A stretch of DNA of 64,000 bases, taken from positions 1,698,556 to 1,762,555 of the forward strand of contig DS990592.1 in NCBI GenBank assembly GCA_000155695.1. The letters run 5' to 3'. This document shows positions 16,881-33,698 of the stretch, one piece after another; the first letter of the stretch is position 1, and each line of letters opens with the position of its first letter. Below the pieces are notes generated by a model. The model was not told where the DNA came from, made no database searches, and saw only the letters and a list, made by a program, of their open reading frames with translations. The stretch is from Verrucomicrobiia bacterium DG1235. GTDB taxonomy: Bacteria; Verrucomicrobiota; Verrucomicrobiia; Opitutales; Opitutaceae. The position numbers were made by a program, and so were the translations under genes.

Positions 16881-16998
16881 GTAGGCATCCCCCAAAATTA
16901 GATAGGGAAATCTCTGTCATTAGAAAATGCATGCACCCGCTGCTTGTTTTTGTGCGTAAACCTAACAAAATAGTGTGAGAACAAAGGTTGCCCTACCC

Positions 16999-18186: not shown

Positions 18187-18257
18187 AGGAACCACCCTCC
18201 TAGGTTTCCTAGAGCAATACCCCTATCCCCGCTACGAAAACCATTCCCGAAAGACCT

Positions 18258-19007
18258 ATGGGCCGAGCAAGCGACCAAGCTTCCCTTGCGAGGCCAGAAA
18301 TTCGATACTCGCGCGTCAATCTCGATCTCTTTCCCGCGAAAGAAAGCTTGTATCCACTCTCTCCCGACGAGATTGAACGCTCCGCTCGTTTCCGCTTTGA
18401 AAGGCATCGCCAGCGCTTCGTGGCTGGACGCTCTTACCTGCGTCAAACCCTCGCCCATTTACTCTCAGTCAAGCCCGATTCGATCCGCTTCACTTATAGC
18501 GAATACGGTAAGCCATCCGTCGACATTCTCCACAGCGGGGCTCAATCTCCCTTGTTCTTCAACCTCTCGCATTGCGAAGAGCTAATGGTTCTCGCCATCT
18601 CCCGCAGCATCGAGATCGGCATTGACGTGGAAAAGGTCCGAAAACTCCCAGACGAAGAGCAGCTCGTAGACCAATTCTTCGAGAAGCGCGAAAGAGAGGA
18701 ATATCACGCCCTACCCGAGGCTTTGAAAACCCAGGGGTTCTTCAACTGCTGGACCCGAAAGGAAGCTTTCCTCAAAGCGCGAGGCGACGGACTCCAAACG
18801 CCCTTGGATTCATTCAGCGTTTCACTCGACCCGAGGCTCGAGTGCCGTATCCGAAAATTCAATTCGCTTCCAGAGTCGATCGACGATTGGACGCTCAAAA
18901 CAATCGATTGCGGCAATGACGCAATAGTAGCTATCGCTGCCAAAACGAAAGTAACGACATTGCAACTATTTAGTAATAGCGACGAGCAAAGTTTCGAAGA
19001 ATTCTAG
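18258..19007 (+). CDS. 4'-phosphopantetheinyl transferase (Sfp type)
   Basis: The protein has 249 residues. Family motifs are FNLSHCEELMVLAIS, IGIDVEKVR with the Mg-binding Asp and Glu, and FNCWTRKEAFLKARGDGL (WxxKEAxxK). It transfers phosphopantetheine from CoA to carrier-protein serines and so should activate the carrier domains of the NRPS genes that follow. It is the first gene of the biosynthetic run, 72 bases after the truncated receptor and 56 bases before the HupE-like gene. The size is typical of Sfp/Gsp enzymes rather than short AcpS. Confidence 0.93.
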   Translation: MGRASDQASLARPEIRYSRVNLDLFPAKESLYPLSPDEIERSARFRFERHRQRFVAGRSYLRQTLAHLLSVKPDSIRFTYSEYGKPSVDILHSGAQSPLFFNLSHCEELMVLAISRSIEIGIDVEKVRKLPDEEQLVDQFFEKREREEYHALPEALKTQGFFNCWTRKEAFLKARGDGLQTPLDSFSVSLDPRLECRIRKFNSLPESIDDWTLKTIDCGNDAIVAIAAKTKVTTLQLFSNSDEQSFEEF

Positions 19008-19063
19008 CGATACACGCCATCCGTTTCCGATTTCCATATAACCTCTCCTAACGCCTCATTCCT

Positions 19064-20212
19064 ATGATACGAAAGCTCATATGCCTCGCCTCGATAGTAC
19101 TCTCGAGCGCCTCCTTGTTCGCCCACGAGCGTGGAGAAAACTACGTTTTCCTCCAATTCCACCCCAGCAAAATTGATGGACGCGTCGAAATCAAAATCGA
19201 CGAACTGAAGGAAAAGCTCGGAGTAGACATTCTTGAAAATGGCGAGGCCTCAATTGAAAAAATTCAGCAAACCGCGTCACAAGTACATGAATACATCAAA
19301 CGAAACCTGAAAATAGGCCCCCAGTCTGATCAGGAATTCGAACTTAAATTCACTAGATCCAGCCTTTTCGAAGGAGAAGGCGGCTGGGCCCAGTATGAGT
19401 TTCAAATCGATACCGAGCGCGTTCCAGCGTTTCTGCACATCACTCACACCATGTGCTACGAAAACGACCGTATGCATCGCGGCATCGTCGTCCTAGAAAA
19501 AGGCAAGTGGCCGGCGCCCGACTACGAGATGCTCATCTCAATGGTGTTCAGTCCGAACAATTCGACTCAAGTTCTCGACGTTGCAAACCCTCCCGAGGTC
19601 ATGACACCTCTCGCGATGATATGGCAAGGCGTTCTCCACATTTGGATCGGCATCGACCATGTCCTTTTCCTCATCGCCCTTACCCTTCCCATCGTCCTCG
19701 TTCGCGATGCGGAAACCAAGCGCTGGAAGCCCTCTAAAGGATTCGGGAAATCGCTCTGGCCCCTCATCAAAGTTATAACCGTATTCACGGTCGCGCATTC
19801 AATCACTCTCCTTCTCGCGAGCCTGGAAATAGTAAGCATACCCTCCCGATTCGTTGAGTCAGTTATAGCTTTTTCGATTATAATCGTCGCCCTTAACAAT
19901 ATCTTTGGAAGAAGCCACAACACATCCCTGGTTGTCATACTTTTGCTAGGTCTCTTCCACGGACTTGGTTTCGCGAGCGTCATGGCCGAGCTGCCTATGC
20001 GCATATCGGAAATCAAACACTTCTTGCTGATCATAGTCGCCTTCAACTTTGGCGTGGAGTTAGGACAGATCGCCATCCTGCTAGTCGCCTTTCCGCTGCT
20101 TTTTGCCCTCAGAACAACTAAAATCTACTCGCCACTTGTTCTGACCGGCGGATCTGCAGCTCTCATATTTGTAGCTGGCTACTGGTTCGTCGAACGCGCC
20201 TTCGGCCTGTAA
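19064..20212 (+). CDS. HupE/UreJ-family membrane protein with N-terminal extracytoplasmic domain
   Basis: The protein has 382 residues. A signal peptide (MIRKLICLASIVLSSASLFA) and a periplasmic domain of about 180 residues precede six or seven membrane segments. The membrane part has WIGIDHVLFLIALTLPIV and GLFHGLGFASVMAELPM, hallmarks of the HupE/UreJ_2 group linked to nickel or cobalt transport in known cases. The His and Asp in those segments could bind a metal. It sits 15 bases before the carrier-protein gene, so it is probably cotranscribed with the NRPS cluster. Whether it moves metal for an enzyme or belongs to the preceding receptor is unclear. Confidence 0.75.
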   Translation: MIRKLICLASIVLSSASLFAHERGENYVFLQFHPSKIDGRVEIKIDELKEKLGVDILENGEASIEKIQQTASQVHEYIKRNLKIGPQSDQEFELKFTRSSLFEGEGGWAQYEFQIDTERVPAFLHITHTMCYENDRMHRGIVVLEKGKWPAPDYEMLISMVFSPNNSTQVLDVANPPEVMTPLAMIWQGVLHIWIGIDHVLFLIALTLPIVLVRDAETKRWKPSKGFGKSLWPLIKVITVFTVAHSITLLLASLEIVSIPSRFVESVIAFSIIIVALNNIFGRSHNTSLVVILLLGLFHGLGFASVMAELPMRISEIKHFLLIIVAFNFGVELGQIAILLVAFPLLFALRTTKIYSPLVLTGGSAALIFVAGYWFVERAFGL

Positions 20213-20227
20213 TTTCCGAAAAAACTT

Positions 20228-20491
20228 ATGCCCTCCCCCTCCGAAATAGAAGAAATAATCGTGTCGTTTATCGTGGAGACGCTGGCAGCTGCAGAACGAA
20301 ACGAAATCGACCGTGAAGACAATCTCATCGTCGACGGCATTCTCGACTCGATTAGCATCATGCGGCTCATCGCTCATCTTGAGACCGAACTCGATTTCAA
20401 GATCCCGCCGCGAGACCTCATCTCCAGCAATTTCATGACTATCAAAGCCATGGTCACCTATCTAAGCTCCAAGGCCGGAACCACCCCGTAA
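20228..20491 (+). CDS. Free-standing acyl/peptidyl carrier protein
   Basis: The protein has 87 residues with one carrier-domain helix bundle. The phosphopantetheine site is VDGILDSISIMRL, with the Ser after the Asp. The following ETELDFKIPPRDLISSNFMT matches carrier proteins of the PltL/AnaD type, which hold an amino acid while it is oxidised. The stop overlaps the next start in a TAATG. It should be charged by the free adenylation enzyme at 22746 and serve as substrate of the dehydrogenase at 21572. Confidence 0.88.
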   Translation: MPSPSEIEEIIVSFIVETLAAAERNEIDREDNLIVDGILDSISIMRLIAHLETELDFKIPPRDLISSNFMTIKAMVTYLSSKAGTTP

Positions 20492-21588
20492 TGACTTCCA
20501 AACTACTAAAAAACACAGATATAGAAACCATACTCCGACGCGTTGGAATCAACACCTTGATCGATCAGCTGATCGAGAAATTGAAAACGGGATTCAGCCA
20601 GTTGAACAAGGATTCAAGCCTGATTCCGGCGCGCACCGGCATTCATTACTCGAATCCAGACATCGGCCTACTCGAGTGGATGCCAGCCTCCGTGGGAGAC
20701 GGTACCGTTTCACTCAAGATCGTCGGCTACCACCCCTCCAACCCGGAACAAAACGGCCTGCCAACCATCCTCTCGTCGCTATGCGTCTTCGATTCCACCT
20801 CAGGCCACCTGAGAGGCATCATGGACGGTACCTTTCCTACCGCCCTGCGAACCGGAGCCATGTCCGCTCTGGCGACTTCCCTCATGGCTGATTCCACTCG
20901 AGCCAGCACGCTCGGAATCATCGGGTGCGGAGCCCAATCCGTTACCCAGTGCCACGCCCTCTCCAGAACTCTGCCCATAGACAAAATCATCGCCTACGAC
21001 CGAGACCCGGATTCCGCCGCAAGCCTTGCCCAACGGATAGCATTTCTCGAAATACCGGTCGAAGTCGTTTCAGTCTCAAATCTCGAATCCTTGCTTGAAC
21101 GGTCCGACATACTCTGCACCTGTACCTCCGAAACGCCTGGGAGCGGGCCGCTCTTTAGAGATTTCCCAAACAAGCCGGGGCTCCATGTCAACGCCGTCGG
21201 CTCAGACTTCCCCGACAAGTACGAACTCCCCGTCGAACTACTCCAACGAAGCGTCGTCATTCCCGACTTCCGAGAACAAGCCCTAGTCGAAGGCGAGTGC
21301 CAACAACTCGAGCCCGACAAAGTCACGCACGACCTCACGTCCCTGCTCAACGTTTCCGGGCTGCAAAAACACTGCAAGACAACTCTCAGCGTATTCGATT
21401 CTACAGGACACGCATACGCCGACTACTTAACTGGCCTTCTCTTCATGCAACACGCCCATGAGATGCGCATCGGCTCCGACATTGAATTGGAATGCACTCC
21501 TACGGATCCCAAGAACCCATACTCATTCCTCACGAAAGAGTCCTTACCGGAGTTGCATGCAAAGGAAGCGAATGCCTCCCTTCGATAA
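20491..21588 (+). CDS. Ornithine cyclodeaminase/mu-crystallin family protein
   Basis: The protein has 365 residues. It shows the family N-terminus, TGAMSALATSLMADSTRAST and the Rossmann motif LGIIGCGAQSVTQC, later FDSTGHAYADYLTG. Ornithine cyclodeaminase makes L-proline and ammonia from L-ornithine; other members reduce imines or make diaminopropionate precursors. Between a carrier protein and a prolyl-carrier-type dehydrogenase, a proline-supplying role is attractive but inferred. The gene starts inside the stop of the carrier gene and ends within the start region of the dehydrogenase gene, indicating tight coupling. Confidence 0.83.
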   Translation: MTSKLLKNTDIETILRRVGINTLIDQLIEKLKTGFSQLNKDSSLIPARTGIHYSNPDIGLLEWMPASVGDGTVSLKIVGYHPSNPEQNGLPTILSSLCVFDSTSGHLRGIMDGTFPTALRTGAMSALATSLMADSTRASTLGIIGCGAQSVTQCHALSRTLPIDKIIAYDRDPDSAASLAQRIAFLEIPVEVVSVSNLESLLERSDILCTCTSETPGSGPLFRDFPNKPGLHVNAVGSDFPDKYELPVELLQRSVVIPDFREQALVEGECQQLEPDKVTHDLTSLLNVSGLQKHCKTTLSVFDSTGHAYADYLTGLLFMQHAHEMRIGSDIELECTPTDPKNPYSFLTKESLPELHAKEANASLR

Positions 21589-22738
21589 GAATATGCATTT
21601 TACCCTTACCCCAGAACAAGAACAGATAAAGTCCGAGACGCTAGCCATTGCGAGCAAGCTATCCGCAAAGGACAGGACCTCTCGCGACCGGGAGTCTCGT
21701 TTCGACGCAGACGGTTGGAAAATGCTCGCCCAAGCGGGCTTCTTCGACGGCTTCCTGCCAGAAGACTTTGGCGGAAAAAACTGGGATACGCTCACTAAAG
21801 TCATCGCCTTGGAAGCGTTTGGATACAGCTGCCGCGACAACGGCCTCGCTCTCGCTGTCAGCTCCCTTGTTTGGACCATTTTTCCTCCGCTTCTCACCTT
21901 TGGCTCCGACGAGCAAAAGAAACGCTATCTCCCTCAACTCGCTTCCGGAAACTGCATCGCCGCTGACGGAATAACCGAGGAGCAATCAGGCTCAGACGCC
22001 ATGGCCATGCAAACCCTAGCGACACGCAGAAACGACGGCTATCTGGTAAACGGCGAAAAATGCTACATTGGTTTCGCGCCGATCGCCGACCTGATCCTGC
22101 TCTTCGCCAAGACGGACCCTAATGCAGGATCCTGGGGGATTTCGGCCTTCCTCGTCGATGCGAACACTCCCGGTATCCATAAATCTGATAACCGAGAAAA
22201 AATGGGACTGCGCACCCTTCCGATGGGAAACATCGCTTTCCGCGATTGCCTCATCCCGCATTCCGCCCTGCTTGGCAGCGAGGGACTCGGCTTGAGCCTG
22301 TTCAACGAATCGATGGAATGGGAACGAAGCTTCATCCTCGCCACTCAAGTCGGAGCAATGGCTCGCCAACTCGACTCCTGTATCGCTTTCGCCAAAAAAC
22401 GCAGCCAGTTCGGCAAATCTATCAGCGAATTCCAGAGCATTTCCAATCGCATCGCCGACATGCGCGTACGCCTAGAGACCTGTAGGCTGCTACTCTACAA
22501 AACCGCTTCCCTCAAAGACCAAGGCGAATCCATCACGCTCGAATCTGCCATGACCAAGCTCACCCTCTCCGAATCCTTCGTCGCATCAAGTATGGACGCG
22601 GTGCGCATCCACGGAGCTCAAGGCTACCTCAGCGAATTTGAAGTGGAAAGAAACCTTCGTGACGCAACCGGAGGACTCATTTACGCCGGAACATCGGACA
22701 TACAGCGAAACCTCATCGCACGCCTGTGCGGCATTTGA
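21572..22738 (+). CDS. Acyl-CoA dehydrogenase-family enzyme, likely prolyl/aminoacyl-carrier dehydrogenase (PltE/RedW/AnaB-like)
   Basis: The protein has 388 residues from the ATG at 21572, which has AAGGAAG just upstream; the ATG at 21593 is an alternative. Flavin motifs include ITEEQSGSD and FGKSISEFQSISNRIADMR. The usual catalytic Glu of the YEGTS motif is replaced: the text reads LIYAGTSDIQRN. A Glu is present instead in NESMEWERSF, the isovaleryl-CoA dehydrogenase position also used by prolyl-carrier dehydrogenases. With the carrier protein and adenylation enzyme this fits four-electron oxidation of prolyl-S-carrier to pyrrole-2-carboxyl-S-carrier, or two-electron oxidation to a pyrroline. 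Confidence 0.85.
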   Translation: MPPFDKNMHFTLTPEQEQIKSETLAIASKLSAKDRTSRDRESRFDADGWKMLAQAGFFDGFLPEDFGGKNWDTLTKVIALEAFGYSCRDNGLALAVSSLVWTIFPPLLTFGSDEQKKRYLPQLASGNCIAADGITEEQSGSDAMAMQTLATRRNDGYLVNGEKCYIGFAPIADLILLFAKTDPNAGSWGISAFLVDANTPGIHKSDNREKMGLRTLPMGNIAFRDCLIPHSALLGSEGLGLSLFNESMEWERSFILATQVGAMARQLDSCIAFAKKRSQFGKSISEFQSISNRIADMRVRLETCRLLLYKTASLKDQGESITLESAMTKLTLSESFVASSMDAVRIHGAQGYLSEFEVERNLRDATGGLIYAGTSDIQRNLIARLCGI

Positions 22739-22745
22739 TCAAACG

Positions 22746-24341
22746 ATGAGATACTTGCTCCACCATTCCATTTTCGAACAAGCGGCCGCGCGACCGAACG
22801 CGGAAGCCTTCAGTTGCCGCGACGAAACACTAAGCTACCAAAGCCTCTTCGAAAAATCCGCCCAGCTCGCACAGACCCTCAAAAGCCTAGGCCTGCAGCC
22901 AATGGACCGCGTCGGCATCCTCATGGGGAAATGCGCCGATCTTCCAGTATCCACATATGGAATACTTATGGCAGGCGGGGCCTACGTTCCCATCGATCCC
23001 AACGCTCCGAAAAGCAGAATCGAATTCATAATAAAAGACTGTGGTATCAATATTCTCATTACGAATAGGCAAAAGAGAAAAATCGTATCCAGCATAGCTG
23101 AATCCCCAGCTACCCCGCTCCGCCATATCATCGGGCTTCCGGAAAACACGGTAGACAACGACCATATCTCGACTCACTCCTGGGCTCAGGTTTTCCAGGC
23201 TGAAAAAACGCCGCCAGCGAATAGAATCCACGAAGACGATCTCGCCTACGTCATGTACACTTCCGGATCGACCGGCATGCCAAAGGGCTTGATGCATACG
23301 CACAGCAGCGGACTCGCTTACGCCCGCTACTCAGCCGATCTCTACGATGTAGGACCTAGCGATATTCTAGGCAACCACGCTCCCCTCCACTTCGACATCT
23401 CCACCTTCGAATTTCTCACTGGCCCCTATGCCGGAGCGAAGTCTGTCCTCATCCCCGAAGAGGACATACTCTTCCCCAATAGCCTCGCTCCGCTTATCGA
23501 AAGAGAACGTCTCACTTTCTGGTATTCAGTACCGCTCGCTCTCATCCAACTCATCTCAAGCGGCCTTCTGACAAACGTCGACTGCTCTCGACTTCGCTGG
23601 ATCCTATTTGGCGGAGAACCCTTCCCCCCAAAGTACGTAGAGCAACTCACTAAACTCATCCCTAGCGCCCGACTTTGCAACGTCTATGGCCCCGCCGAAG
23701 TCAACCAATGCACCTACTATCACCTTCCAAAAAACTTCGAGGATTCAGGCGAAGCCATCCCTATCGGAAATATTTGGAAGGGAGCCCAAGCGCTTGTCGT
23801 CACCCCCGACGGAACCTGCCCGCAAGCGGATGAACCGGGCGAACTCCTGATCAGCTCTCCAACAATAATGAAAGGCTATTGGGGACGCGAAGACCTTAAC
23901 AAAAAATCATTCCACTACGAGGAGCCCATACCGGGATTCGTGCGACGCTACTACCGTACAGGCGACATCGTATCGACCGACAAAGATGGAGGCCTTCACT
24001 TCATCGGCAGAAAAGACCGACAGGTGAAAATCCGCGGCAACCGCATAGAGCTCGACGAAGTCGAAGCGGTTTTCGCCACGCAGGAGCAGGTCCTCGAAGC
24101 AGCAGCCGTTGTCATTGAATCCAACGAAGAAAAACAAATCGTAGTCTATGTATCACTACAAGGAAAAGACCCTTTCGATCCAGCCCTTTCACTGGAACGC
24201 GCTCGGATGAGACTCCCTCGCTACGGCGTTCCACAAAGACTGGAAATCCTTACAGTTTTCCCGCGCACAACCAGCGGCAAAATCGACCGAAAAAAGCTCG
24301 TCACGCAATATGCCTCCCAACCAATCAATCAAAGCGTCTAG
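22746..24341 (+). CDS. Free-standing amino-acid adenylation enzyme (prolyl-carrier ligase candidate)
   Basis: The protein has 531 residues from the ATG at 22746. Core motifs are YVMYTSGSTGMPKGLMHTH (A3), FDISTFEFLTG (A4), VYGPAEVNQCTYYHLP (A5), YYRTGD (A7), RKDRQVKIRGNRIELDEVE (A8) and TTSGKIDRKKLV (A10 Lys). There is no condensation or carrier domain. The GPAEVNQCTYY stretch resembles PltF/AnaC-type ligases (GPTETNVCTYY), which load proline on a free carrier. The overlap of 32 bases with the next gene and the adjacent carrier and dehydrogenase genes support the starter-unit role. By-eye pocket positions do not match a proline code I know, so specificity remains open. Confidence 0.82.
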   Translation: MRYLLHHSIFEQAAARPNAEAFSCRDETLSYQSLFEKSAQLAQTLKSLGLQPMDRVGILMGKCADLPVSTYGILMAGGAYVPIDPNAPKSRIEFIIKDCGINILITNRQKRKIVSSIAESPATPLRHIIGLPENTVDNDHISTHSWAQVFQAEKTPPANRIHEDDLAYVMYTSGSTGMPKGLMHTHSSGLAYARYSADLYDVGPSDILGNHAPLHFDISTFEFLTGPYAGAKSVLIPEEDILFPNSLAPLIERERLTFWYSVPLALIQLISSGLLTNVDCSRLRWILFGGEPFPPKYVEQLTKLIPSARLCNVYGPAEVNQCTYYHLPKNFEDSGEAIPIGNIWKGAQALVVTPDGTCPQADEPGELLISSPTIMKGYWGREDLNKKSFHYEEPIPGFVRRYYRTGDIVSTDKDGGLHFIGRKDRQVKIRGNRIELDEVEAVFATQEQVLEAAAVVIESNEEKQIVVYVSLQGKDPFDPALSLERARMRLPRYGVPQRLEILTVFPRTTSGKIDRKKLVTQYASQPINQSV

Positions 24342-27300
24342 CTTCCTCGAGCGGATAACGGAAGACTCCGGCCTCACCCACAGCCAAATTCAGATTTGGG
24401 TGGGTCAAAAGGTGCACCCGCAGAGCCCCTTCTGCAATATGGCCTTTGGCATCGAAATAGAGGGTGAAATCGACGTCGAAACATTCGAACAGGCTTGGGC
24501 AAAAGTTGTTTCCGAAAATAGCGTCCTCCGCACGAGAATTCTCGAATTGAAGTCCGTTCCGCAGCGCTCGCTGACTCCTCCAGCCGATTTCTCCCTAGAG
24601 AAACTCGATTTTTCAAATCACGAGCAGCCCGCCAACTATTTCCGTAGCTGGGCCCGAAAACGTTGCTCCACCCTTCTCCCGCTCGAAGGGAAACTTGTTG
24701 AATCAGCAATCGTCAAGCTCGCTCCGAACGCATACGCCTGGTACCTCAACCAGCATCACTTGATCACCGATGCGACTTCGACCGTGCGCCTCTACCAAGC
24801 CATCTCGGATGCATACGAACAACTCACCGAAGAGCAGGCAGCCGCTGTATCGAATTTTGAAGACTACTACGAAGTCTCCTCGAAAATCAGTGACGAGACA
24901 GCCGAAATCCGCGAACACGCAAAACAGCACTGGTCAACCAAAGGGACGCAGACAGAAAGACTGACTCCCATTTACGGCAGGAAAGGCGACGCAGCTCAGA
25001 CTGAAAGCTCGCGCCTCGAATACCAGCTCGACGAGAGACAATCCGAGCGTATCCGCAAACTTGCCAGCGAACCCGAGCTGCAAAGCCTCTTTCCCGACAT
25101 TTCAACCTTCGCTGTCTTCTCCACGCTTCTCTCCGCATTCCTATACCGATCAAGCGGTCAGAATGCCGTTTCTTTCGATTCCCCTGCCGCAAATCGATCA
25201 ACCCGCTCGGCGAAAAACGCGCTCGGTTGCTTTATCGAAATGTTCCCACTTGATCTGCAAGTCGAAGAAGGGGCGACCTTTCGTAGTCTCGCAGCCCATT
25301 GCATGGAAGAGATTCACTCCTTCCTGCAAAACGTGTCAAACGGAGCGAGCTCCCCAAGCGGCTCAAACACCAGCAACGTCGTCCTCAACCTCTTTACCCT
25401 GCCTTTCGGCTCCTTCGCTGGTTGCCCCACCCGTGCGGAGTGGATTCACTCCGGACACATAGACGGTGTATACGATTTCAAACTACAAGTTCACGACTAC
25501 AACGCCGACGGACGCTACACGCTCCATTTCGACCTGAGCGAATCGACTTTCACAGCAGAAGACCAACAGCGAATACAGTTCCATTTCATTAGCATGCTCG
25601 ACGCCATGATCGAGAATTTGGATACGCCGATCGCAGCCGTCGACATTCTATCGGAATCGGAACGCAATCACCTTCTCATTGACTACAATCGACCATCGCT
25701 CGCTCCCATTCCTACCGATACGGTGATCGAACGCATCGCCAGGCAAGCGGCGGCCACACCCGATCGAATCGCTCTACGCCAGCAATCCAAGACCCTCACC
25801 TACAAAGAATTATGGGACCAAGTCGAAGCCTCCGCCCGCTGCCTCAACTCAAGAGGAATCGGACCGGAAAGCTGCGTGGCTCTCATCATGCCACGATCGC
25901 AGGAGACCATTTTATCTATCCTCGCCGTCCTGCGGGCCGGAGCAGCCTACATTCCAATCGACCCGACCTACCCTGAAGAACGCATTGCCAAGATCCTCGC
26001 CGACTCCGGAGCCAACTGCCACATCAAATCTTTCAGCGAATTGCTAGATGGCAATAAACGAAGCGAACTTCCTCCTTTTCCAAAGTCTGGCGACCTAGCC
26101 TATGTCATTTATACTTCGGGCTCCACCGGGCAGCCTAAGGGCGTAGAAATCGAGCACCGCGGACTTGTCGACTATATCGATTGGGCAGAGCGGGAATACG
26201 TTCGCGGCGAACAGCTAACATACCCCCTCTTCACTTCCCTCTCTTTCGATCTAACCGTCACCAGCCTTTTCCTCCCACTCGTCACTGGTGGAGAGCTCGT
26301 CGTCTATCCGCAAACCAGCGCTGAAGTCGACTCAGCCGTAATCGACGTCATCAACGAAAATACCGTCGATTTCATCAAACTTACCCCCTCCCATCTTTCG
26401 CTGCTCAAACAGCTCGACCTCAAACGCTCCCGCATCAGCCGACTCGTTCTCGGAGGCGAAGACCTGAAGCTTAGCTTAGCCTCCACGATCGCGGCACAGT
26501 TCGGGCACCCCGTTGAACTCTACAACGAATACGGGCCAACCGAATGCGTAGTTGGCTGCATGATACATCGATTCGATCCCACCTCGGATTTCGCTAACGA
26601 GTCAAGTGTTCCCATAGGCCGACCTGCTGATCATGTTTCGCTCTACTTGCTGAACGACCGGCTACAGCCCGTTCCCGAAGGCGCTCCAGGTGAGCTTTGC
26701 ATAGCTCGCAACGGCATCGCCCGAGGCTACCGAAACGATCCCGAAAAAACTGCCCTCTCCTTCGTCGCCAATCCCTACCGGCCGGGCGAACGCCTCTACC
26801 GCACAGGAGACTTGGCTCGCTTCTCCGCCAAAGGGGTAATGACCTACCTCGGCAGAATTGACAAGCAGGTCAAAATCTCCGGTCACCGGATCGAATTGGG
26901 TGAAATCGAAGCGACTCTCCTGCGTCATCCTTCAGTACGAAACGCATTCGTAAGCACGCGAGCGCCAGACATACAAACCCGCCCCACCGGCGCGGCGGCT
27001 CACTGCACCCGTTGCGGGCTTTCATCCCATTACCCAAACATAGTCTTCAATGCAGAAGGCGTATGCAGCGTCTGCGACTCCTACCATTCTATAAAAGGCG
27101 AAGCCAGCCACTACTTTAGCGACCCAGAATCACTGAAAGAGCTATTTAAAGCCTCACGCAATAAACGACGAGGCAACTACGATTGCATGGTGTTCTTCAG
27201 CGGAGGAAAGGATAGCGCCTATGCGCTTTGCCAGCTAGTAGATATGGGGCTGAACGTCTACGCATTCACCTTGGACAACGGCTACCTTTCCGACCAGGCC

Positions 27301-28506
27301 ATGGCGAATATCAGCCGCGTAACGAAGAGTCTCGGAGTCGAGCATGAGTTCGCCACTACGCCGGCGATGAACGAAATCTTTCGCGATAGTCTCACCCGAT
27401 TCAGCAACGTCTGCAACGGTTGCTTCAAGACCATATATACACTCGGCATGAATCGAGCGAACGAGCTTGGCATACCTATTATCGTCACAGGACTTTCGCG
27501 CGGACAATTTTTCGAAACCCGACTCACCGGAAACCTATTCGAAAACGGTCGCTTCAGCCCCCAAGATGTAGACGAAGCAGTTCTTGAAGCTCGCAAACGC
27601 TACCATCGCGACGACGACGCCGTATCACGCTGCCTCGACGTTAGCAAATTTCAAGACGACTCGATTTTCGAAGAAATCCAATTCGTGGACTTCTACCGTT
27701 ACTGGGACGCGCCTCTGGAAGAAATCTACTCCTACCTCGATAGGCGTGTCCCGTGGATACGCCCCTCAGACACTGGCAGATCCACCAATTGCAGAGTAAA
27801 CGACGTCGGCATCTACATACACCAAAAGGAACGCGGTTTTCACAACTACTCACTGCCATACAGTTGGGATGTACGACTCGAACAAAAGAAACGTGAAGAA
27901 GCAATCGAAGAGCTTGACGACAAATTCGACCTCGCGGAAGTCAGGCAAATGCTCGCTGAAATCGGTTATGACGAAGATCGAATCGCCGCAGATGAAAACC
28001 GCGTCGAACTCGTAGCCTACTACGAAGCGGACAGTGAAATCGAAGCAAACAGTCTGCTAAAAACTCTCGAGCGACACCTGCCTCCCCAAATGCGACCGCG
28101 ACACATCGTACACATCGATTCGATGCCGTTAACCAAAAATGGAAAGGTAGACGAAGCAGCCCTGCCGCAGCCACTAGACAAGCGTCCAGATCAAGACGCG
28201 CCAATCATCGAGCCAAATGGTCCCGTTCAGGAACACGTATTCAGTATTTGGAGTCAAACCTTGAACCTTAAGACAATTAGCGTAACCGACAGCTTTTTTC
28301 AGCTTGGAGGAACCTCCCTCACAGCCATGGAAATAACTTTGCAGATCTGCCAGGACTTCGAGATCGATCTCCCGTTGCAGACGATATTCCAACACCCCAC
28401 CATCGCCCAGCTTTCCTCCAAAATTGAAAATACAATCCTCGAAGAAATTGAAAGCCTAAGCGAAGAAGATGCCAACAATCTCCTGAGCGAGGAAAGCCCA
28501 TCGTGA
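24310..28506 (+). CDS. NRPS module C-A-T with a PP-loop ATPase domain inserted in the adenylation domain
   Basis: The protein has 1398 residues. A condensation domain occupies about 20-450 with an intact HHLITDA at 149-155. An adenylation domain follows from about 475: A3 at 598-611 (YVIYTSGSTGQPKG), A5 with YNEYGPTECVVG, A8 with GRIDKQVKISGHRIELGEIE. After residue about 889 the domain is interrupted by some 340 residues carrying Cys899/902 and Cys919/922, PP-loop SGGKDS at 964-969 and Cys1035/1038. The adenylation domain resumes at VELVAYY (about 1232) with A10 Lys1279 in LTKNGKV. A carrier domain ends the protein (LGGTSL, Ser1336). The pocket read by eye is DLTKVGEVGK, close to the asparagine code. 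No epimerase is present. Confidence 0.92.
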   Translation: MPPNQSIKASSFLERITEDSGLTHSQIQIWVGQKVHPQSPFCNMAFGIEIEGEIDVETFEQAWAKVVSENSVLRTRILELKSVPQRSLTPPADFSLEKLDFSNHEQPANYFRSWARKRCSTLLPLEGKLVESAIVKLAPNAYAWYLNQHHLITDATSTVRLYQAISDAYEQLTEEQAAAVSNFEDYYEVSSKISDETAEIREHAKQHWSTKGTQTERLTPIYGRKGDAAQTESSRLEYQLDERQSERIRKLASEPELQSLFPDISTFAVFSTLLSAFLYRSSGQNAVSFDSPAANRSTRSAKNALGCFIEMFPLDLQVEEGATFRSLAAHCMEEIHSFLQNVSNGASSPSGSNTSNVVLNLFTLPFGSFAGCPTRAEWIHSGHIDGVYDFKLQVHDYNADGRYTLHFDLSESTFTAEDQQRIQFHFISMLDAMIENLDTPIAAVDILSESERNHLLIDYNRPSLAPIPTDTVIERIARQAAATPDRIALRQQSKTLTYKELWDQVEASARCLNSRGIGPESCVALIMPRSQETILSILAVLRAGAAYIPIDPTYPEERIAKILADSGANCHIKSFSELLDGNKRSELPPFPKSGDLAYVIYTSGSTGQPKGVEIEHRGLVDYIDWAEREYVRGEQLTYPLFTSLSFDLTVTSLFLPLVTGGELVVYPQTSAEVDSAVIDVINENTVDFIKLTPSHLSLLKQLDLKRSRISRLVLGGEDLKLSLASTIAAQFGHPVELYNEYGPTECVVGCMIHRFDPTSDFANESSVPIGRPADHVSLYLLNDRLQPVPEGAPGELCIARNGIARGYRNDPEKTALSFVANPYRPGERLYRTGDLARFSAKGVMTYLGRIDKQVKISGHRIELGEIEATLLRHPSVRNAFVSTRAPDIQTRPTGAAAHCTRCGLSSHYPNIVFNAEGVCSVCDSYHSIKGEASHYFSDPESLKELFKASRNKRRGNYDCMVFFSGGKDSAYALCQLVDMGLNVYAFTLDNGYLSDQAMANISRVTKSLGVEHEFATTPAMNEIFRDSLTRFSNVCNGCFKTIYTLGMNRANELGIPIIVTGLSRGQFFETRLTGNLFENGRFSPQDVDEAVLEARKRYHRDDDAVSRCLDVSKFQDDSIFEEIQFVDFYRYWDAPLEEIYSYLDRRVPWIRPSDTGRSTNCRVNDVGIYIHQKERGFHNYSLPYSWDVRLEQKKREEAIEELDDKFDLAEVRQMLAEIGYDEDRIAADENRVELVAYYEADSEIEANSLLKTLERHLPPQMRPRHIVHIDSMPLTKNGKVDEAALPQPLDKRPDQDAPIIEPNGPVQEHVFSIWSQTLNLKTISVTDSFFQLGGTSLTAMEITLQICQDFEIDLPLQTIFQHPTIAQLSSKIENTILEEIESLSEEDANNLLSEESPS
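26975..28000 (+). other. Inserted zinc-ribbon plus PP-loop (WbpG/AANH-like) domain within the NRPS adenylation domain
   Basis: Domain part of the NRPS above, about residues 889-1230. It starts with a four-Cys ribbon (CTRCGLSSHYPNIVFNAEG, then VCSVCDSYH). It continues with CMVFFSGGKDSAYALCQLVD, the PP-loop, then FTLDNGYLSDQAMANISRV and VCNGCFKTIY. This order is that of N-acetyl sugar amidotransferases (WbpG/PseA) and of related adenine-nucleotide alpha-hydrolase enzymes that adenylate a carbonyl and let ammonia or sulfide attack. The insertion lies between motifs A8 and A10, where methyltransferase domains sit in known interrupted adenylation domains. All Cys pairs and the PP-loop are intact, so activity is likely. 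Confidence 0.9.
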
Positions 28507-31500
28507 AAGCTGGCGAAGAACAACCAAACATTCCGCCGCGCCCAGCCCTCTCCGAACAGAAACGCCGACTGCTGGAGCAAAGATTAAACCGATCCTCAAG
28601 ATCCATAGGATTCAAAGACGACGGAATCCCGAAGCGTCCCCCAAACAACAAAACGCTCGCCTCGCTCGGCCAAGCCCGCATTTGGGTCCTAAATGATCTG
28701 AGCGAGAAGTCTCCATCCTACAATATTACGAGCAGCTTCGAAGTACTAAGCTCCATCGACAAATCAGCACTACGAATTGCTCTCAACAAGGTCGTCGAAC
28801 GACACGAACCTCTCCGCAGCACCTACCGTTTGGAGGATGGCGAAGTTATCCAACACGCAATACCCTCGCCCGAACTTGAGATTGACCAACAGAACTGCAA
28901 AGACCTCGCCTCCGCCCGTAGTTCGGCCCAGATATATGGGCGTATTCCCTTCGACGTGGAAACCGGACCACTTCTCCGGGTTGGCCTATTTACAGCCAGT
29001 CAAGAGCACCATGTACTCATCTTATCAATACATGATCTTGTTTTCGACAAATGGTCACTTAAGGTATTTTGGAACGAATTTAGCGAGTTCTACCGCCAAG
29101 CAACAGACAATACTATCGCGAAACTTGCGACCTTGCCCATCTCATACTCTGACTTCTCCCACTGGCAACGCCGATGGCTTGAAGAAGGAAATCGCAAGCG
29201 CCAAATTGAATACTGGAAGGAAAAGCTAAAGGCAACGCCACCGCCAATCCCACTGCCAACCGACTTTCCCTATCCGCAAACCATTGGAGACCCTGGGGGT
29301 CTAGAACGTTCCATTCTCGACGAGTCTACAAGTCGAAAAGCGAAAGAGTTCTCCGCCCAGAACGATGTATCCTTGTTTACAACATTTCTGCTTGGTTTCA
29401 GTATACTACTTAGCAGGTATTCAGAAACTGAAAACATATTAATATCTAGTCCCGTCGCTAATCGAAGAAAGAAAGAAACGGCAAACCTGATAGGCTTTTT
29501 CCTCAACACTCTAGTAGTTCGAGCTGATCTCACAGGAAATCCTACCGTACGCGAAGCCCTAGCGCGAACGCGACTCACTGTGCTAGAAGCGCTCGATAAT
29601 CAAGACCTCCCCACAGATGCAATTGTAGACGCGATCAAGCCCTCTCGCGTCACTGGACGCCATCCCTTGTTTCAAACCATGTTCGTTTATCAACGGGAAG
29701 ACGAAGGTACACCAAAGCTTAGCCTCAAGGACTGCCGCATCGAACCGATCTTCATCGAAACGAAAACCTCAAAATTCGATCTTAGCCTTTTCGTAGCTGA
29801 GTCTGGGAACGCCTTCGAAACAGTTGCCGAATACCGCACCGATATTTTCCAAGCCAAAACCATCCAGAAATTCCTCGAACACTTCAACGTCCTGATGGGC
29901 GACCTGGTTGCCAATCCCTCAAAACGCGCTCAAGAGCTGGAGATTCTTACCCCCGAGGAACGAACCAAACTCCTTCACAATCACAAGAATTCCGCTTTCG
30001 GCAATCAACCGAAAGAAACCTTACCTGAAGCGATACTATCCTTCGCCTCCACCCGGCCAAAAACTATTGCTATCACCGGGCCGAACTCGACTTTCACCTA
30101 TCAGGAACTCGAAAAAAGAACAGCCGGACTGGCCCGAGCGCTCGTTGAGCTCCCTCGAAATGAAGATGCTCCTGTCGGAATATTTTTAGAGCGTTCGCCT
30201 GAAGCTATCATCGCTATTATCGCCGCACTTCGTTCGGGCGCGGCCTATCTCCCTCTCGACCCTCATTATCCAAAGAAGCGAAACCAGAGCATCATTCAAG
30301 ACGCCCTGCCTTTCGCGTTTATCGCTAGCCAGAGCGAGTCGTCTACCATCAAAGAAGTATCCAACTCTCCAATACTTTCCATTCTCCATTCAAATTCGTC
30401 CAATACTCAACTACCTAAGCTAAGCGTAGACAATAACGCCTACCTGATCTACACTTCCGGCTCGAGCGGCCAACCTAAAGGAGTCATGGTCACCCATCGA
30501 AACCTAAGCTATTCCACGCTTTCCCGTACCCATTTTTATCCGACACCACCAAGTCGATACCTACTAGTGTCAAGCCTTGCATTCGATAGTTCAGTCGCCG
30601 GCATCTTCTGGACACTCTCGACAGGTAATACCTTGGTGACATTAGGCGCAGGACTTGAACGAGAACCGGACGCGATAAGAGAAGCCGTTAGACGATTCCA
30701 AGCGACACACCTTCTCTGCATTCCAACACTCTTTCGCGAAGTCATTGCCGCAGACTTTGATAAACTAAGCACACTCAACACCGCAATCGTAGCCGGCGAA
30801 TCCTGCCCACCAGAGCTCGCAAAGACACACTACCGTAGACTGCCTAATTGTTCCCTCTACAATGAATACGGTCCAACTGAGACCACAGTCTGGTGCACCG
30901 CTACAAAACTAGATAAGGATTCTCCAACAACGATTGGAGTCGCAATTCCGTACTACGAAATCCACGTGCTTTCGCCTCATCAGCAAACCCTACCAAGCGG
31001 GGTTCCCGGCGAGCTATGCGTCTCCGGGCCAGGAGTAGCAAAAGGTTATCTCAATCAATCAGACCTCACCAAAAAACGCTTTCCTACCATAACTCTCCCG
31101 GACGGACGACGAATCCGAATGTACCGCACCGGGGACAAGGTTAAGCGACTTCACAATGGCGAGCTCGAATATCTCGGACGAATCGACGGACAAATCAAAG
31201 TTAACGGCTTCCGCTTCGAGCCTGGTGAGACCGAAACAGCTCTCGATGCTTGTCCAAATATTGTAGCATCAAACGCCCGGCTCATTTCGAACGAACACAA
31301 CGATCCGAACACGGCCAGGCTCGTCGGATATATCGTCACCGATTCCAAGTTCGATGGAGACTTCAAAGCCTTGAAAGCAAGGCTCTCCAATACGCTTCCC
31401 ATACAAGCCATCCCAACCCAGTTCGTTTTAATCGATGCCATTCCTCGCCTACCTAACGGAAAAATAGACTACAAAAAACTTCCCGTCCCAGACGTCCGCG

Positions 31501-32561
31501 AGAACACCGCTGCCAGTTTTGAGAAACCAACGACTCCCACAGAAAGGAAATTGGTAGAGATTTGGAAAGAAGCCCTCGACATCGAAAGAGTTTCAACGAA
31601 CGATAATTTCTTCGACCTTGGAGGAACCTCACTGCAAGCGATACGCATCTTCTCAAAAATCCGAACTGCCTTCGAGGCTAGTTTGTCTTCGAGTCGGCTT
31701 CTTCAAGCGCCCACCGTCGCTCACTTGGCAAGGCTTCTGGACGAAGAGAGCCGACCCAAAGCGAGCAAATGCCTCGTCCCCCTCAAGACTAAGGGAAATC
31801 TCACCCCCATCTTTCTAATCCACTCCGGAGGGCTACAGGTTCTCTTCTACAAAGACTTGGCGAAACGTATCGACGATCGAATCCCACTCTACGGCCTCCA
31901 AGCCGTCGGACACGATGGAAGCGAGAAACCCCTTACTCGTATCCAGGATATGGCGACTCGATACTTAAGCGAAATTGAGGAAATACATCCTCATGGACCC
32001 TTTATATTCCTCGGCCACTGTTTCGGAGTCACCGTTGCTTTAGAAATGGCGCGACAACTGCAATCCAGAAACAAGGACGTTCCTCTTGTAGTTTCAATCG
32101 ATGGTGAAGCTCCCTATTCACTGGATCATCAAACGCCAGCGCCAGCCCCGTTATTTCCGAACTATCCGAAAGGTCTCAGATTCCTCCGTATCAAAGTGCG
32201 GCAGCTCAGACACGCAATCAGAAAAACTAGAACAAATTTCATCTATCGTTTTGGATCTGAGGAAAGCAAAGAGTTAATCCTCTTAAAACGTACGCGCTCT
32301 GCAATAGGCAAAGCGTTTAGCGGATATCGAGAGTCGCCCTACTCGCAACCGGTTCTCGGCTTTCGTTGTCTTGATTCCGACAAGTATGCCAACCATTCGG
32401 AAAAGGATTGGAGACGAGCCGCTCCTAATATAGAAATGCATCACATCGCCTGTCGACACGAGGAGCTTATTTCCGAGCCTACGGTCCAAAAGACTGCTGC
32501 AATCATCAATCGCAAACTGGCAAGCCTCCCCCCCTATGCCAGCCTACAAGCAGAGGATTGA
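28503..32561 (+). CDS. Terminal NRPS module C-A-T-TE with HD-type condensation site and Cys thioesterase
   Basis: The protein has 1352 residues and a GTG start overlapping the previous stop. After about 50 residues comes a condensation domain whose core reads HDLVFDKWS at 177-185, so the second His of HHxxxDG is Asp178. The adenylation domain has YLIYTSGSSGQPKG (A3), YNEYGPTETTVW (A5), MYRTGD (A7), GRIDGQIKVNGFRFEPGE (A8) and RLPNGKIDYKK (A10). A carrier domain follows (LGGTSLQAI, Ser1043). The C-terminal alpha/beta hydrolase has GHCFG at 1171-1175, with Cys1173 where thioesterases usually have Ser. The pocket read by eye is DSALIAEVWK, which I cannot assign. The domain should release the product, possibly by cyclisation. 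Confidence 0.9.
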   Translation: MKAGEEQPNIPPRPALSEQKRRLLEQRLNRSSRSIGFKDDGIPKRPPNNKTLASLGQARIWVLNDLSEKSPSYNITSSFEVLSSIDKSALRIALNKVVERHEPLRSTYRLEDGEVIQHAIPSPELEIDQQNCKDLASARSSAQIYGRIPFDVETGPLLRVGLFTASQEHHVLILSIHDLVFDKWSLKVFWNEFSEFYRQATDNTIAKLATLPISYSDFSHWQRRWLEEGNRKRQIEYWKEKLKATPPPIPLPTDFPYPQTIGDPGGLERSILDESTSRKAKEFSAQNDVSLFTTFLLGFSILLSRYSETENILISSPVANRRKKETANLIGFFLNTLVVRADLTGNPTVREALARTRLTVLEALDNQDLPTDAIVDAIKPSRVTGRHPLFQTMFVYQREDEGTPKLSLKDCRIEPIFIETKTSKFDLSLFVAESGNAFETVAEYRTDIFQAKTIQKFLEHFNVLMGDLVANPSKRAQELEILTPEERTKLLHNHKNSAFGNQPKETLPEAILSFASTRPKTIAITGPNSTFTYQELEKRTAGLARALVELPRNEDAPVGIFLERSPEAIIAIIAALRSGAAYLPLDPHYPKKRNQSIIQDALPFAFIASQSESSTIKEVSNSPILSILHSNSSNTQLPKLSVDNNAYLIYTSGSSGQPKGVMVTHRNLSYSTLSRTHFYPTPPSRYLLVSSLAFDSSVAGIFWTLSTGNTLVTLGAGLEREPDAIREAVRRFQATHLLCIPTLFREVIAADFDKLSTLNTAIVAGESCPPELAKTHYRRLPNCSLYNEYGPTETTVWCTATKLDKDSPTTIGVAIPYYEIHVLSPHQQTLPSGVPGELCVSGPGVAKGYLNQSDLTKKRFPTITLPDGRRIRMYRTGDKVKRLHNGELEYLGRIDGQIKVNGFRFEPGETETALDACPNIVASNARLISNEHNDPNTARLVGYIVTDSKFDGDFKALKARLSNTLPIQAIPTQFVLIDAIPRLPNGKIDYKKLPVPDVRENTAASFEKPTTPTERKLVEIWKEALDIERVSTNDNFFDLGGTSLQAIRIFSKIRTAFEASLSSSRLLQAPTVAHLARLLDEESRPKASKCLVPLKTKGNLTPIFLIHSGGLQVLFYKDLAKRIDDRIPLYGLQAVGHDGSEKPLTRIQDMATRYLSEIEEIHPHGPFIFLGHCFGVTVALEMARQLQSRNKDVPLVVSIDGEAPYSLDHQTPAPAPLFPNYPKGLRFLRIKVRQLRHAIRKTRTNFIYRFGSEESKELILLKRTRSAIGKAFSGYRESPYSQPVLGFRCLDSDKYANHSEKDWRRAAPNIEMHHIACRHEELISEPTVQKTAAIINRKLASLPPYASLQAED

Positions 32562-32567
32562 ATTCGT

Positions 32568-33698
32568 ATGGATGCACCGGTAGCAATTGCCAAACTCGAC
32601 GCTGGTCTCGCCTCCATTTGGCCCTGTAAGCTCGCTTTAGACGAAGTTCGAAAACTACTCGCCTTGGCAGTTCACGCTCAACTTGCGAGAAAAACTGCAG
32701 AAGCGATACTTACTCTCGATCATACCTGCGTTTGCGAAGAATCCATAAGGCTTGCGCAATCCGCCGTCGACGCCTGCCAATCCATCAGCGACTACTCATC
32801 GAGCGCCCAAGACAAGCTAGGTGAGGTCTTCGAGCGCCAAGGAGTTAAGGCCTGCCAAAGCCAGAAAAAAACTAAATTAGCAGAACTTCAACACCAGCAA
32901 CTATTTATCCGAATCGGTAGGGACAAAATCGATCAGGCTATTGAAATCGCTACAACCAATGGATTCTATAAAGCTCATAATATCTCCGGTGCAAACTGGG
33001 AATGCTACAAGAGGTTCAATAAAAGGATCGATCTCATTAAACGCGACGATGTGACAACGCGCCTTCGCCTCGCTTGGCATCCCAATAAAGTATATAATCG
33101 AATTCCCCAATTTCTCCGTCCGGCTACAAAGAGTGTCGAGCCCATCCGACTTTCCGCGAAACTATGGTGGATCTCCTTGCTTACCTCTCCTATTTTTAGT
33201 CTAGCGAAGAAACGCAGCCGGCAGGACAAACAAACCGATTGGCCCTTTCTAGGCACTCCGATGGAACTCATACCATCCCTTCTCGAGTTCGCCAACATCA
33301 CCCCCTCCGATACGCTACTCGACATCGGGTGTGGCGACGGAAGAATCGTTCTCGAAGCCGCCAAAACCTACGGATGTAAATCTATCGGCATCGAAAAAGA
33401 CCCGGACCTAGCCAATTTAGCAAAAAAACGGGTAGAAAGTGCAGACTTCCAAAACCAGGTAACGATCATCAGTGGGGTTGCGACAGAATTGAGTTACACG
33501 GACGTTTCAGTGGTGTTTCTATTCCTTCCCGTAAGAAGCATCACGAATCTCATCGATTCTCTTTTAGAGAAACTTACTCCCGGATCACGCATTATAGTGC
33601 ACGAACAAGCAGACCTTCCCAATAGTTTGAAGCCGTCTGCCTCAGTTCCTTTCTTCTGTAAATCAGGCATCACAGTAGCTCATATTTGGATCGTTTAG
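32568..33698 (+). CDS. Class I SAM-dependent methyltransferase with unrecognised N-terminal domain
   Basis: The protein has 376 residues. From about residue 235 there is a SAM-binding fold: LLDIGCGDGRIVLEAAKTYG (motif I), SIGIEKDPDLA (motif II) and VVFLFLPV. The first 220 residues are helical-looking, with several Cys and Lys, and I do not recognise them. It starts six bases after the terminal NRPS gene and is the last gene of the plus-strand run, so it likely tailors the peptide or its carrier-bound precursor by N-, O- or C-methylation. Target and regiochemistry cannot be read. The following 171 bases (33699-33869) are AT-rich and without a gene. Confidence 0.78.
   Translation: MDAPVAIAKLDAGLASIWPCKLALDEVRKLLALAVHAQLARKTAEAILTLDHTCVCEESIRLAQSAVDACQSISDYSSSAQDKLGEVFERQGVKACQSQKKTKLAELQHQQLFIRIGRDKIDQAIEIATTNGFYKAHNISGANWECYKRFNKRIDLIKRDDVTTRLRLAWHPNKVYNRIPQFLRPATKSVEPIRLSAKLWWISLLTSPIFSLAKKRSRQDKQTDWPFLGTPMELIPSLLEFANITPSDTLLDIGCGDGRIVLEAAKTYGCKSIGIEKDPDLANLAKKRVESADFQNQVTIISGVATELSYTDVSVVFLFLPVRSITNLIDSLLEKLTPGSRIIVHEQADLPNSLKPSASVPFFCKSGITVAHIWIV

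What the first reader, a model, noticed from the sequence alone, without database searches (positions are those of the whole stretch)
26975..28000. NRPS adenylation domain interrupted by a zinc-ribbon PP-loop (WbpG/AANH-like) domain
Between motifs A8 and A10 of the first NRPS lies an insert of about 340 residues. It has two CxxC pairs (899/902, 919/922), a PP-loop SGGKDS (964-969) and a third CxxC (1035/1038). Known interrupted adenylation domains mostly carry methyltransferases at this site. PP-loop enzymes of this kind adenylate a carbonyl and add ammonia or sulfur (WbpG amidine formation, CtaC-type thioamide formation). Together with an asparagine-like pocket this suggests on-line conversion of a side-chain or backbone amide to an amidine or thioamide. 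The domain fusion is seen directly; the reaction is inference. I do not know a described example, but I could not search.
Basis: partly seen in the sequence, partly recalled or inferred. Interest (0 to 1): 0.95.

Follow-up and report, generated by a model that had tools for sequence, protein, structure and literature searches.

The report
Asparagine-modifying domain inside a peptide synthetase
A peptide-making enzyme that selects asparagine carries, inserted in its amino-acid-loading domain, a second enzyme that most likely turns the asparagine side chain into a nitrile; this kind of insert is already known from the antibiotics cystobactamid and albicidin, but here it sits in a widespread, apparently unstudied gene cluster that looks like a metal-scavenging pathway.

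Summary
It is not a one-off: all 80 retained public relatives (ten phyla by record title) have an A domain before the insert, with Asn-type codes in all 76 readable rows. But it is not undescribed: the cystobactamid paper (PMC7966384) defines a 38-kDa 'AMDH' domain inserted in the Asn A domain of CysH (homologue in albicidin AlbIV) that dehydrates carrier-bound Asn to beta-cyanoalanine or gives isoasparagine. That is the likeliest reaction here, rather than amidine or thioamide. Added here: the fold; seven invariant cysteines, three of them placed like the [4Fe-4S] ligands of LarE/TtuA/CtaC, which could explain why CysH is brown; no HisH/HisF ammonia genes beside the insert (0 of 80 loci, against 15 of 18 NASAT loci); and a recurring cluster predicting pyrrole-Asn*-His with HupE and TonB genes. 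CysH itself could not be aligned (not held), and the reaction in these clusters is inferred.

The parts
24310..28506 (+). NRPS1: C - A(Asn) interrupted by PP-loop insert - T, 1398 aa
26977..27984 (+). Inserted PP-loop domain (res. 890-1225, 38.6 kDa): C899/C902/C919/C922 (zinc site of NASAT by homology), SGGKDS 964-969, CXXC-C set C1035/C1038/C1161
25738..26958 (+). A domain N-terminal core of NRPS1 (res. 477-883), pocket DLTKVGEVG(K): Asn type
28009..28149 (+). A domain C-terminal part after the insert (about res. 1234-1280, with the A10 Lys)
28240..28416 (+). T (carrier) domain of NRPS1 (res. 1311-1369)
28503..32561 (+). NRPS2: C-A-T-TE; pocket DSALIAEVW(K), a His code in PMC12283262; C motif HDxxxD variant; GHCFG at the usual TE nucleophile site
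22638..24341 (+). Free-standing A domain, prolyl/pyrrole-loading type pocket by recalled comparison (true start probably later)
21458..22738 (+). Acyl-CoA-dehydrogenase-like; best matches are the PigA and RedW prolyl-carrier dehydrogenase models (below their cut-offs; true start probably later)
20228..20491 (+). Small free-standing protein with carrier-type DSI site, recurrent in the clusters (57 of 80 loci)
20491..21588 (+). Ornithine cyclodeaminase family; possible proline supply
18258..19007 (+). 4'-phosphopantetheinyl transferase
19064..20212 (+). HupE/UreJ_2 membrane protein, recurrent in the clusters (46 of 80 loci)
16975..18186 (+). N-terminal part (plug) of a TonB-dependent receptor; ends at 403 aa where homologues have frames of 706-790
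32568..33698 (+). Methyltransferase-domain protein
33870..35513 (-). Uncharacterised, probably membrane protein with homologues in 8 of the 80 loci

Best explanation
The insert is an AMDH-type domain, as described in CysH (cystobactamid). The A domain loads L-Asn onto its own T domain. The PP-loop domain then binds ATP, adenylates the side-chain amide oxygen of Asn-S-T, and AMP is eliminated to leave a nitrile (beta-cyanoalanyl-S-T), without an external nucleophile. The invariant CXXC-C cysteines probably hold a three-Cys [4Fe-4S] cluster next to the ATP site, and the four other cysteines a zinc ion. The condensation domain joins pyrrole-2-carboxylate (made on the free carrier protein from proline) to the residue, and NRPS2 adds His and releases the product, a pyrrolyl-(cyano)Ala-His peptide probably handled by the HupE and TonB proteins as a metal ligand. 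Shown here by computation: architecture, predicted fold, cysteines, pockets, cluster. Shown in the literature for CysH only: nitrile formation on the T domain, and the need for the domain in isoAsn and nitrile products. Inferred: that the reaction is the same here, the adenylation-elimination steps, the Fe-S cluster, and the product and its use.
Confidence: 0.68

Rival explanations
1. Thioamide synthetase: the insert adenylates the side-chain amide of Asn-S-T and a [4Fe-4S]-bound sulfide replaces the oxygen, giving thioasparagine, a soft metal ligand for copper.
For: CXXC-C invariant in 83 of 83 rows; CxxC at +71 from the PP-loop serine, as in seven LarE proteins (+70/71) and TtcA-like proteins (+74 in 14 of 15), aligned with both by hhalign; C1038 to C1161 is 123 residues against 127 in CtaC, an Fe-S AANH enzyme that thioamidates carrier-bound peptides; LarE [4Fe-4S] structures come next after NASAT, tied with others; HupE in 46 and TonB receptors in 22 of 80 loci.
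Against: The characterised insert of this kind makes nitrile and isoasparagine; I saw no sulfur product in the passages read. No sulfur-mobilising gene was among the ten recurrent neighbour families annotated or the L076 neighbours annotated; the closthioamide cluster lacks one too. The third Cys sits at +197, against +150-152 in LarE and +163-170 in TtcA-like proteins.
Confidence: 0.13
2. Aminomutase outcome: the insert makes isoasparagine on the T domain.
For: The CysH domain is needed for this, working with the hydroxylase CysJ.
Against: No CysJ-like oxygenase was seen among the window genes scanned or the recurrent neighbour families annotated; not every neighbour was annotated.
Confidence: 0.09
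3. Amidine formation: ammonia attacks the adenylated side-chain amide, as in WbpG/NASAT.
For: Near whole-length homology and best structural match to NASAT.
Against: HisH/HisF neighbours in 15 of 18 NASAT loci but in 0 of 80 insert loci; 16 of 18 NASATs lack the complete cysteine set; the CysH linkers described are Asn, isoAsn and cyanoAla derivatives, no amidine.
Confidence: 0.05
4. The insert works on the backbone: it changes the pyrrole-Asn amide or the thioester rather than the side chain.
For: CtaC acts on backbone amides of carrier-bound peptides; 63 of 80 loci do have a C domain.
Against: Ten stand-alone A-insert-T modules have no acylating domain in the frame but an equally conserved insert; a C domain acting in trans is not excluded.
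Confidence: 0.05

Closest known systems
AMDH domain of CysH (cystobactamid, Cystobacter velatus), PMC7966384
   Same: About 38 kDa domain inserted in an Asn-activating A domain, SGGKD motif, works in cis on T-bound Asn; homologues all in Asn A domains
   Different: CysH is a stand-alone module with shuttle CysB, hydroxylase CysJ and methyltransferase CysQ; here the module is C-A-insert-T between pyrrole-loading and His-adding parts. Sequence identity not measured
AlbIV (albicidin), PMC7966384 and PMC12283262
   Same: Asn A domain, code DLTKIGEVGK linked to it, 342-aa insert of the adenosine nucleotide alpha-hydrolase superfamily, beta-cyanoalanine product
   Different: Stand-alone module in an aminobenzoate peptide pathway; sequence not examined here
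N-acetyl sugar amidotransferase (WbpG/WbuX, LpNASAT 8WEX), PMC10607449
   Same: Predicted fold over the whole insert, zinc tetracysteine and PP-loop
   Different: Free-standing, sugar substrates, usually HisH/HisF neighbours; 16 of 18 examined lack the complete CXXC-C set
CtaC, closthioamide thioamide synthetase, PMC6772006
   Same: PP-loop plus CXXC-C, acts on carrier-bound substrate; similar cysteine spacing
   Different: Free-standing, beta-alanine backbone amides; sequence not compared
LarE / TtuA / TtcA [4Fe-4S] sulfurtransferases, PMC9283937
   Same: PP-loop core and CxxC placement, a third Cys further on

Membership tests
AMDH domain (CysH/AlbIV type) | Inserted in an A domain with Asn specificity | tested here: met
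   Window plus 76 of 76 readable rows (75 of the 80 loci and L031); L039, L050, L064, L070, L085 gave no row of the A1 set (frameshift or fragments), though the L039 fragment reads the same code
AMDH domain (CysH/AlbIV type) | About 38 kDa with SGGKD ATP motif | tested here: met
   38.6 kDa, SGGKDS 964-969
AMDH domain (CysH/AlbIV type) | Sequence homology to the CysH domain (seven core motifs) | not tested
   CysH (record KP836244) did not turn up in the searches I ran and I did not fetch it; the motifs are in a supplement that I could not open
AMDH domain (CysH/AlbIV type) | Dehydrates or isomerises T-bound Asn | not testable with these tools
   needs protein MS
N-acetyl sugar amidotransferase (NASAT, TIGR03573) | Score over the curated cut-off | tested here: not met
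   120.5 bits against 203.2
N-acetyl sugar amidotransferase (NASAT, TIGR03573) | CxxC..CxxC zinc motif, PP-loop and NASAT fold | tested here: met
   motif definition in PMC10607449 (passages); zinc itself not tested
N-acetyl sugar amidotransferase (NASAT, TIGR03573) | HisH/HisF genes nearby (usual, not defining) | tested here: not met
   0 of 80 insert loci (47 of them with full 10-kb flanks), 15 of 18 NASAT loci
[4Fe-4S] PP-loop sulfurtransferase (LarE/TtuA/TtcA/CtaC) | CXXC-C cysteine motif | tested here: met
   83 of 83 rows; CxxC aligned with LarE and TtcA-like profiles; third Cys matched by order only, its distance differs
[4Fe-4S] PP-loop sulfurtransferase (LarE/TtuA/TtcA/CtaC) | Bound [4Fe-4S] cluster and sulfur transfer | not testable with these tools
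   needs spectroscopy and assay
Interrupted adenylation domain (A8-A9 site) | Auxiliary domain between A8 and A9 with A and T intact | tested here: met
   A8 at 848, insert 890-1225, A10 Lys 1279, T at 1311; site described in PMC11355689 (passages)

The most novel reading that the evidence does not exclude
In the pyrrole-Asn-His clusters the domain carries a three-cysteine [4Fe-4S] cluster that delivers sulfide to the adenylated Asn side chain, giving thioasparagine on the assembly line; the product is a pyrrole/thioamide/imidazole copper or nickel scavenger re-imported through TonB and HupE proteins, and nitrile formation as in CysH is what the same active site does without sulfide.
Probability: 0.1. 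Interest if true: 0.85.

Novelty: new member of a known kind. Interest (0 to 1): 0.42.

Why it matters
The AMDH mechanism is stated to be unknown in PMC7966384 (no structural template, brown protein, no Fe-S motif found). The NASAT fold, the zinc-type cysteines and the invariant CXXC-C set give a concrete, testable proposal. Peptides with nitriles are described as rare (PMC13060819 names one), yet this module occurs under record titles from ten phyla, in 24 of 299 sampled genomes of the Zobellia family, and often in a recurring cluster whose pyrrole, His, HupE and TonB parts suggest an unknown metal-handling peptide.

Tried and rejected
Thioamide was my leading reading until, because of CXXC-C, CtaC and the missing HisH/HisF; the AlbIV/CysH precedent moved it to a rival. 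CXXC-C is not exclusive to the inserts: two of 18 free-standing NASATs of the window's class (L012, L020) have it, and the L012 locus also has HisH/HisF (as L145); of 13 free-standing relatives fetched from another phylum sample (L182-L194), five (L182-L186) have CxxC at +74 or +84 plus a Cys at +199 to +205. So the motif alone does not decide between sulfur, ammonia and dehydration. QueC: the insert passes PF06508's cut-off (31.1 against 22 bits) but only over the PP-loop part (2-75 of 210), so I do not file it as QueC. Two Streptomyces plasmid relatives are not typical: L032 is fused to a condensation protein, L033 is free-standing; both are long branches and the insert group alone is not one clade, although insert plus Streptomyces rows split from 18 NASATs with support 100/99.

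Limits: of 167 relatives only the best 80 were returned; L097 and L030 are the same plasmid and L031 nearly the same NRPS, so the 83 rows are not all independent; many loci are MAG contigs, and phylum labels were typed from record titles (L042 is titled Deltaproteobacteria but its genome's phylum group includes the genomes of L039 and L113, titled Acidobacteria and Thermoanaerobaculia). HisH/HisF control: 18 of the 24 non-own genomes with a match; six of the 18 have the variant SGG(V/L)DS and form a separate branch. In one search seven of 14 'LarE' picks did not show the LarE pattern (other PP-loop proteins by their spacing) and were dropped; one locus gave no PP-loop protein; 17 NASATs went into the hhalign profile. 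Pocket positions were mapped by motifs recalled from memory. The A10 pattern was found in 62 of 80 insert frames, a GGxS carrier motif in 76 of 80, and HHxxxD in 61 of 63 C domains before the insert. The distance from A8 to the first Cys was measured on 59 of 83 rows, 55 of them 27-33 residues. Embedded copies are judged by E-value and frame length. The model of the whole interrupted A domain (A2) was never run, so how the insert sits on the A domain is untested. A scan of viral contigs found no relative. Literature: ten full-text searches; the cystobactamid paper was in none of the rows listed; I reached it by a DOI that I recalled after reading. The 2020 survey of interrupted A domains (PMC8341866) is not held, and later papers on the AMDH mechanism may exist outside the library or unseen in it.
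Full report

It is a family. A scan of 84,980 species genomes gave 167 relatives, of which the best 80 were kept, 53-73% identical in the best segment. All 80 have an A domain before the insert in the same frame, 73 a detected T domain after it and 63 a C domain before it. Record titles place them in ten phyla. In the family of Zobellia 24 of 299 genomes hold the embedded form (E 5e-165 or better, frames 1373-1417 aa), clearly apart from the other matches (E 2e-26 or weaker). It is in 3 of 195 genomes of the genus of L076, Bradyrhizobium, and in 7 of 396 genomes, 8 copies, of the phylum of L042's genome. In the window's own class only G000 among 384 genomes had a match in a frame over 700 aa. 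Two Rhodobacterales plasmids carry it as well.

Cysteines. In 83 aligned rows C899, C902, C919, C922, C1035, C1038 and C1161 are invariant, as is SGGKDS. The first four correspond to the zinc site of NASAT (PMC10607449, passages). The other three form a CXXC-C pattern, which in LarE of Thermotoga binds a [4Fe-4S] cluster (PMC9283937, passages). CxxC lies 71 residues after the PP-loop serine; it is 70-71 in seven LarE proteins and 74 in 14 of 15 TtcA-like proteins, and the profiles align there. The third Cys is further away here (+197) than in those. Of 18 free-standing NASATs of the class only two have the full set, but five of 13 free-standing relatives of another phylum sample have a similar one, so the set is typical of the inserts, not unique to them.

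Substrate. Pocket residues read DLTKIGEVG in 60, DLTKVGEVG in 11 and close variants in 5 of 76 rows; the window has DLTKVGEVG. PMC12283262 discusses DLTKIGEVGK among Asp/Asn codes and says it also fits beta-cyanoalanine, found only in albicidin (passages). NRPS2 reads DSALIAEVW; of 52 other A domains read in these loci and in L031 and L032, 29 have exactly that code and 10 a variant by one or two residues. The same paper gives DSALIAEVWK as a His code.

Known precedent. PMC7966384 (abstract and passages read) reports that the stand-alone module CysH contains a 38-kDa inserted AMDH domain. Intact CysH loads Asn and then loses 18 Da, to beta-cyanoalanine; CysH without the domain does not. Deleting the domain from the cluster abolishes isoasparagine and cyanoalanine cystobactamids. 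Homologues found by the authors were all in Asn A domains. The mechanism was unknown, the protein was dark brown, and no CxxCxxxC motif was found. The finding therefore belongs to a described kind, on all features that I could test; the direct alignment is missing.

Which reaction here. Ten loci hold the A-insert-T module without a C domain in the frame, beside a TE-like protein, an acyl-CoA-dehydrogenase-like protein and a PPTase (L076 in detail). There the insert most simply acts on Asn itself. HisH or HisF lie beside 15 of 18 NASAT genes but beside none of the 80 inserts (1.40 Mb searched, phmmer E 1e-10), which speaks against ammonia transfer. With the CysH result this favours dehydration to the nitrile; sulfur insertion stays open because of CXXC-C and the CtaC precedent (PMC6772006, parts 1 and 2 of 3 read).

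Cluster. Among the 80 loci: free A domain 52, carrier protein 57, acyl-CoA-dehydrogenase-like 49, HupE 46, ornithine-cyclodeaminase-like 23, TonB receptor 22, PPTase 23. Many loci are cut short: of the 47 with full flanks the counts are 37, 41, 32, 31, 19, 20 and 16. The window's methyltransferase has a homologue in 1 of 80. In the window the set stands at 16975-33698. The dehydrogenase resembles PigA and RedW, enzymes of pyrrole formation on a carrier protein. The order predicts pyrrole-2-carbonyl, modified Asn, His. That it is a metallophore is inference from HupE, TonB and the His and pyrrole ligands. Two searches for described metallophores listed none that I recognised as this one; of the papers listed I looked only for words in two (PMC12914433, passages; PMC12971057, none of the words found).

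Verdict. Observation confirmed, interpretation partly supported, kind already known, reaction most likely amide dehydration. The lasting points are the fold and cysteine set, which bear on an open mechanism, and an apparently unstudied cluster.

Noticed in passing
window 16975-18186 (+): TonB-dependent receptor gene stops after the plug and a further part (403 aa); homologues in the K14, Zobellia and Agaribacillus genomes have frames of 706-790 aa. It looks truncated in this genome.
   Followed up: partly
window 33870-35513 (-): 547-aa, probably membrane protein without Pfam or NCBIfam match has homologues in 8 of the 80 insert loci (L034, L047, L054, L079, L090, L091, L098, L112); possibly part of the pathway.
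   Followed up: partly
window 28503-32561 (+): NRPS2 C domain has HDxxxD in place of HHxxxD (one of 30 aligned relatives does too), and its thioesterase region has GHCFG, a Cys where Ser is usual.
   Followed up: partly
L076, L078, L070, L071, L073: A gene of one cluster, asparagine-synthetase-like in L076, lies near five of the insert modules, and an asnB precedes the NRPS genes of Streptomyces L032.
   Followed up: no
L182, L183: Free-standing 369-374 aa relatives with CxxC at +84 and a third Cys at +204 of the PP-loop, a spacing near that reported for CtaC (+81 and +211); possible thioamide synthetases.
   Followed up: no
L033 14752-15900: Free-standing relative on a Streptomyces plasmid close to an acyl carrier protein and a ketosynthase gene; possibly another carrier-dependent amide-modifying enzyme.
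   Followed up: no
L030 1-3313 and L031 1-3304: The Rhodobacterales plasmids that carry the insert-bearing NRPS also carry a gene annotated as sugar amidotransferase with HisF and HisH beside it, a within-replicon comparison.
   Followed up: partly
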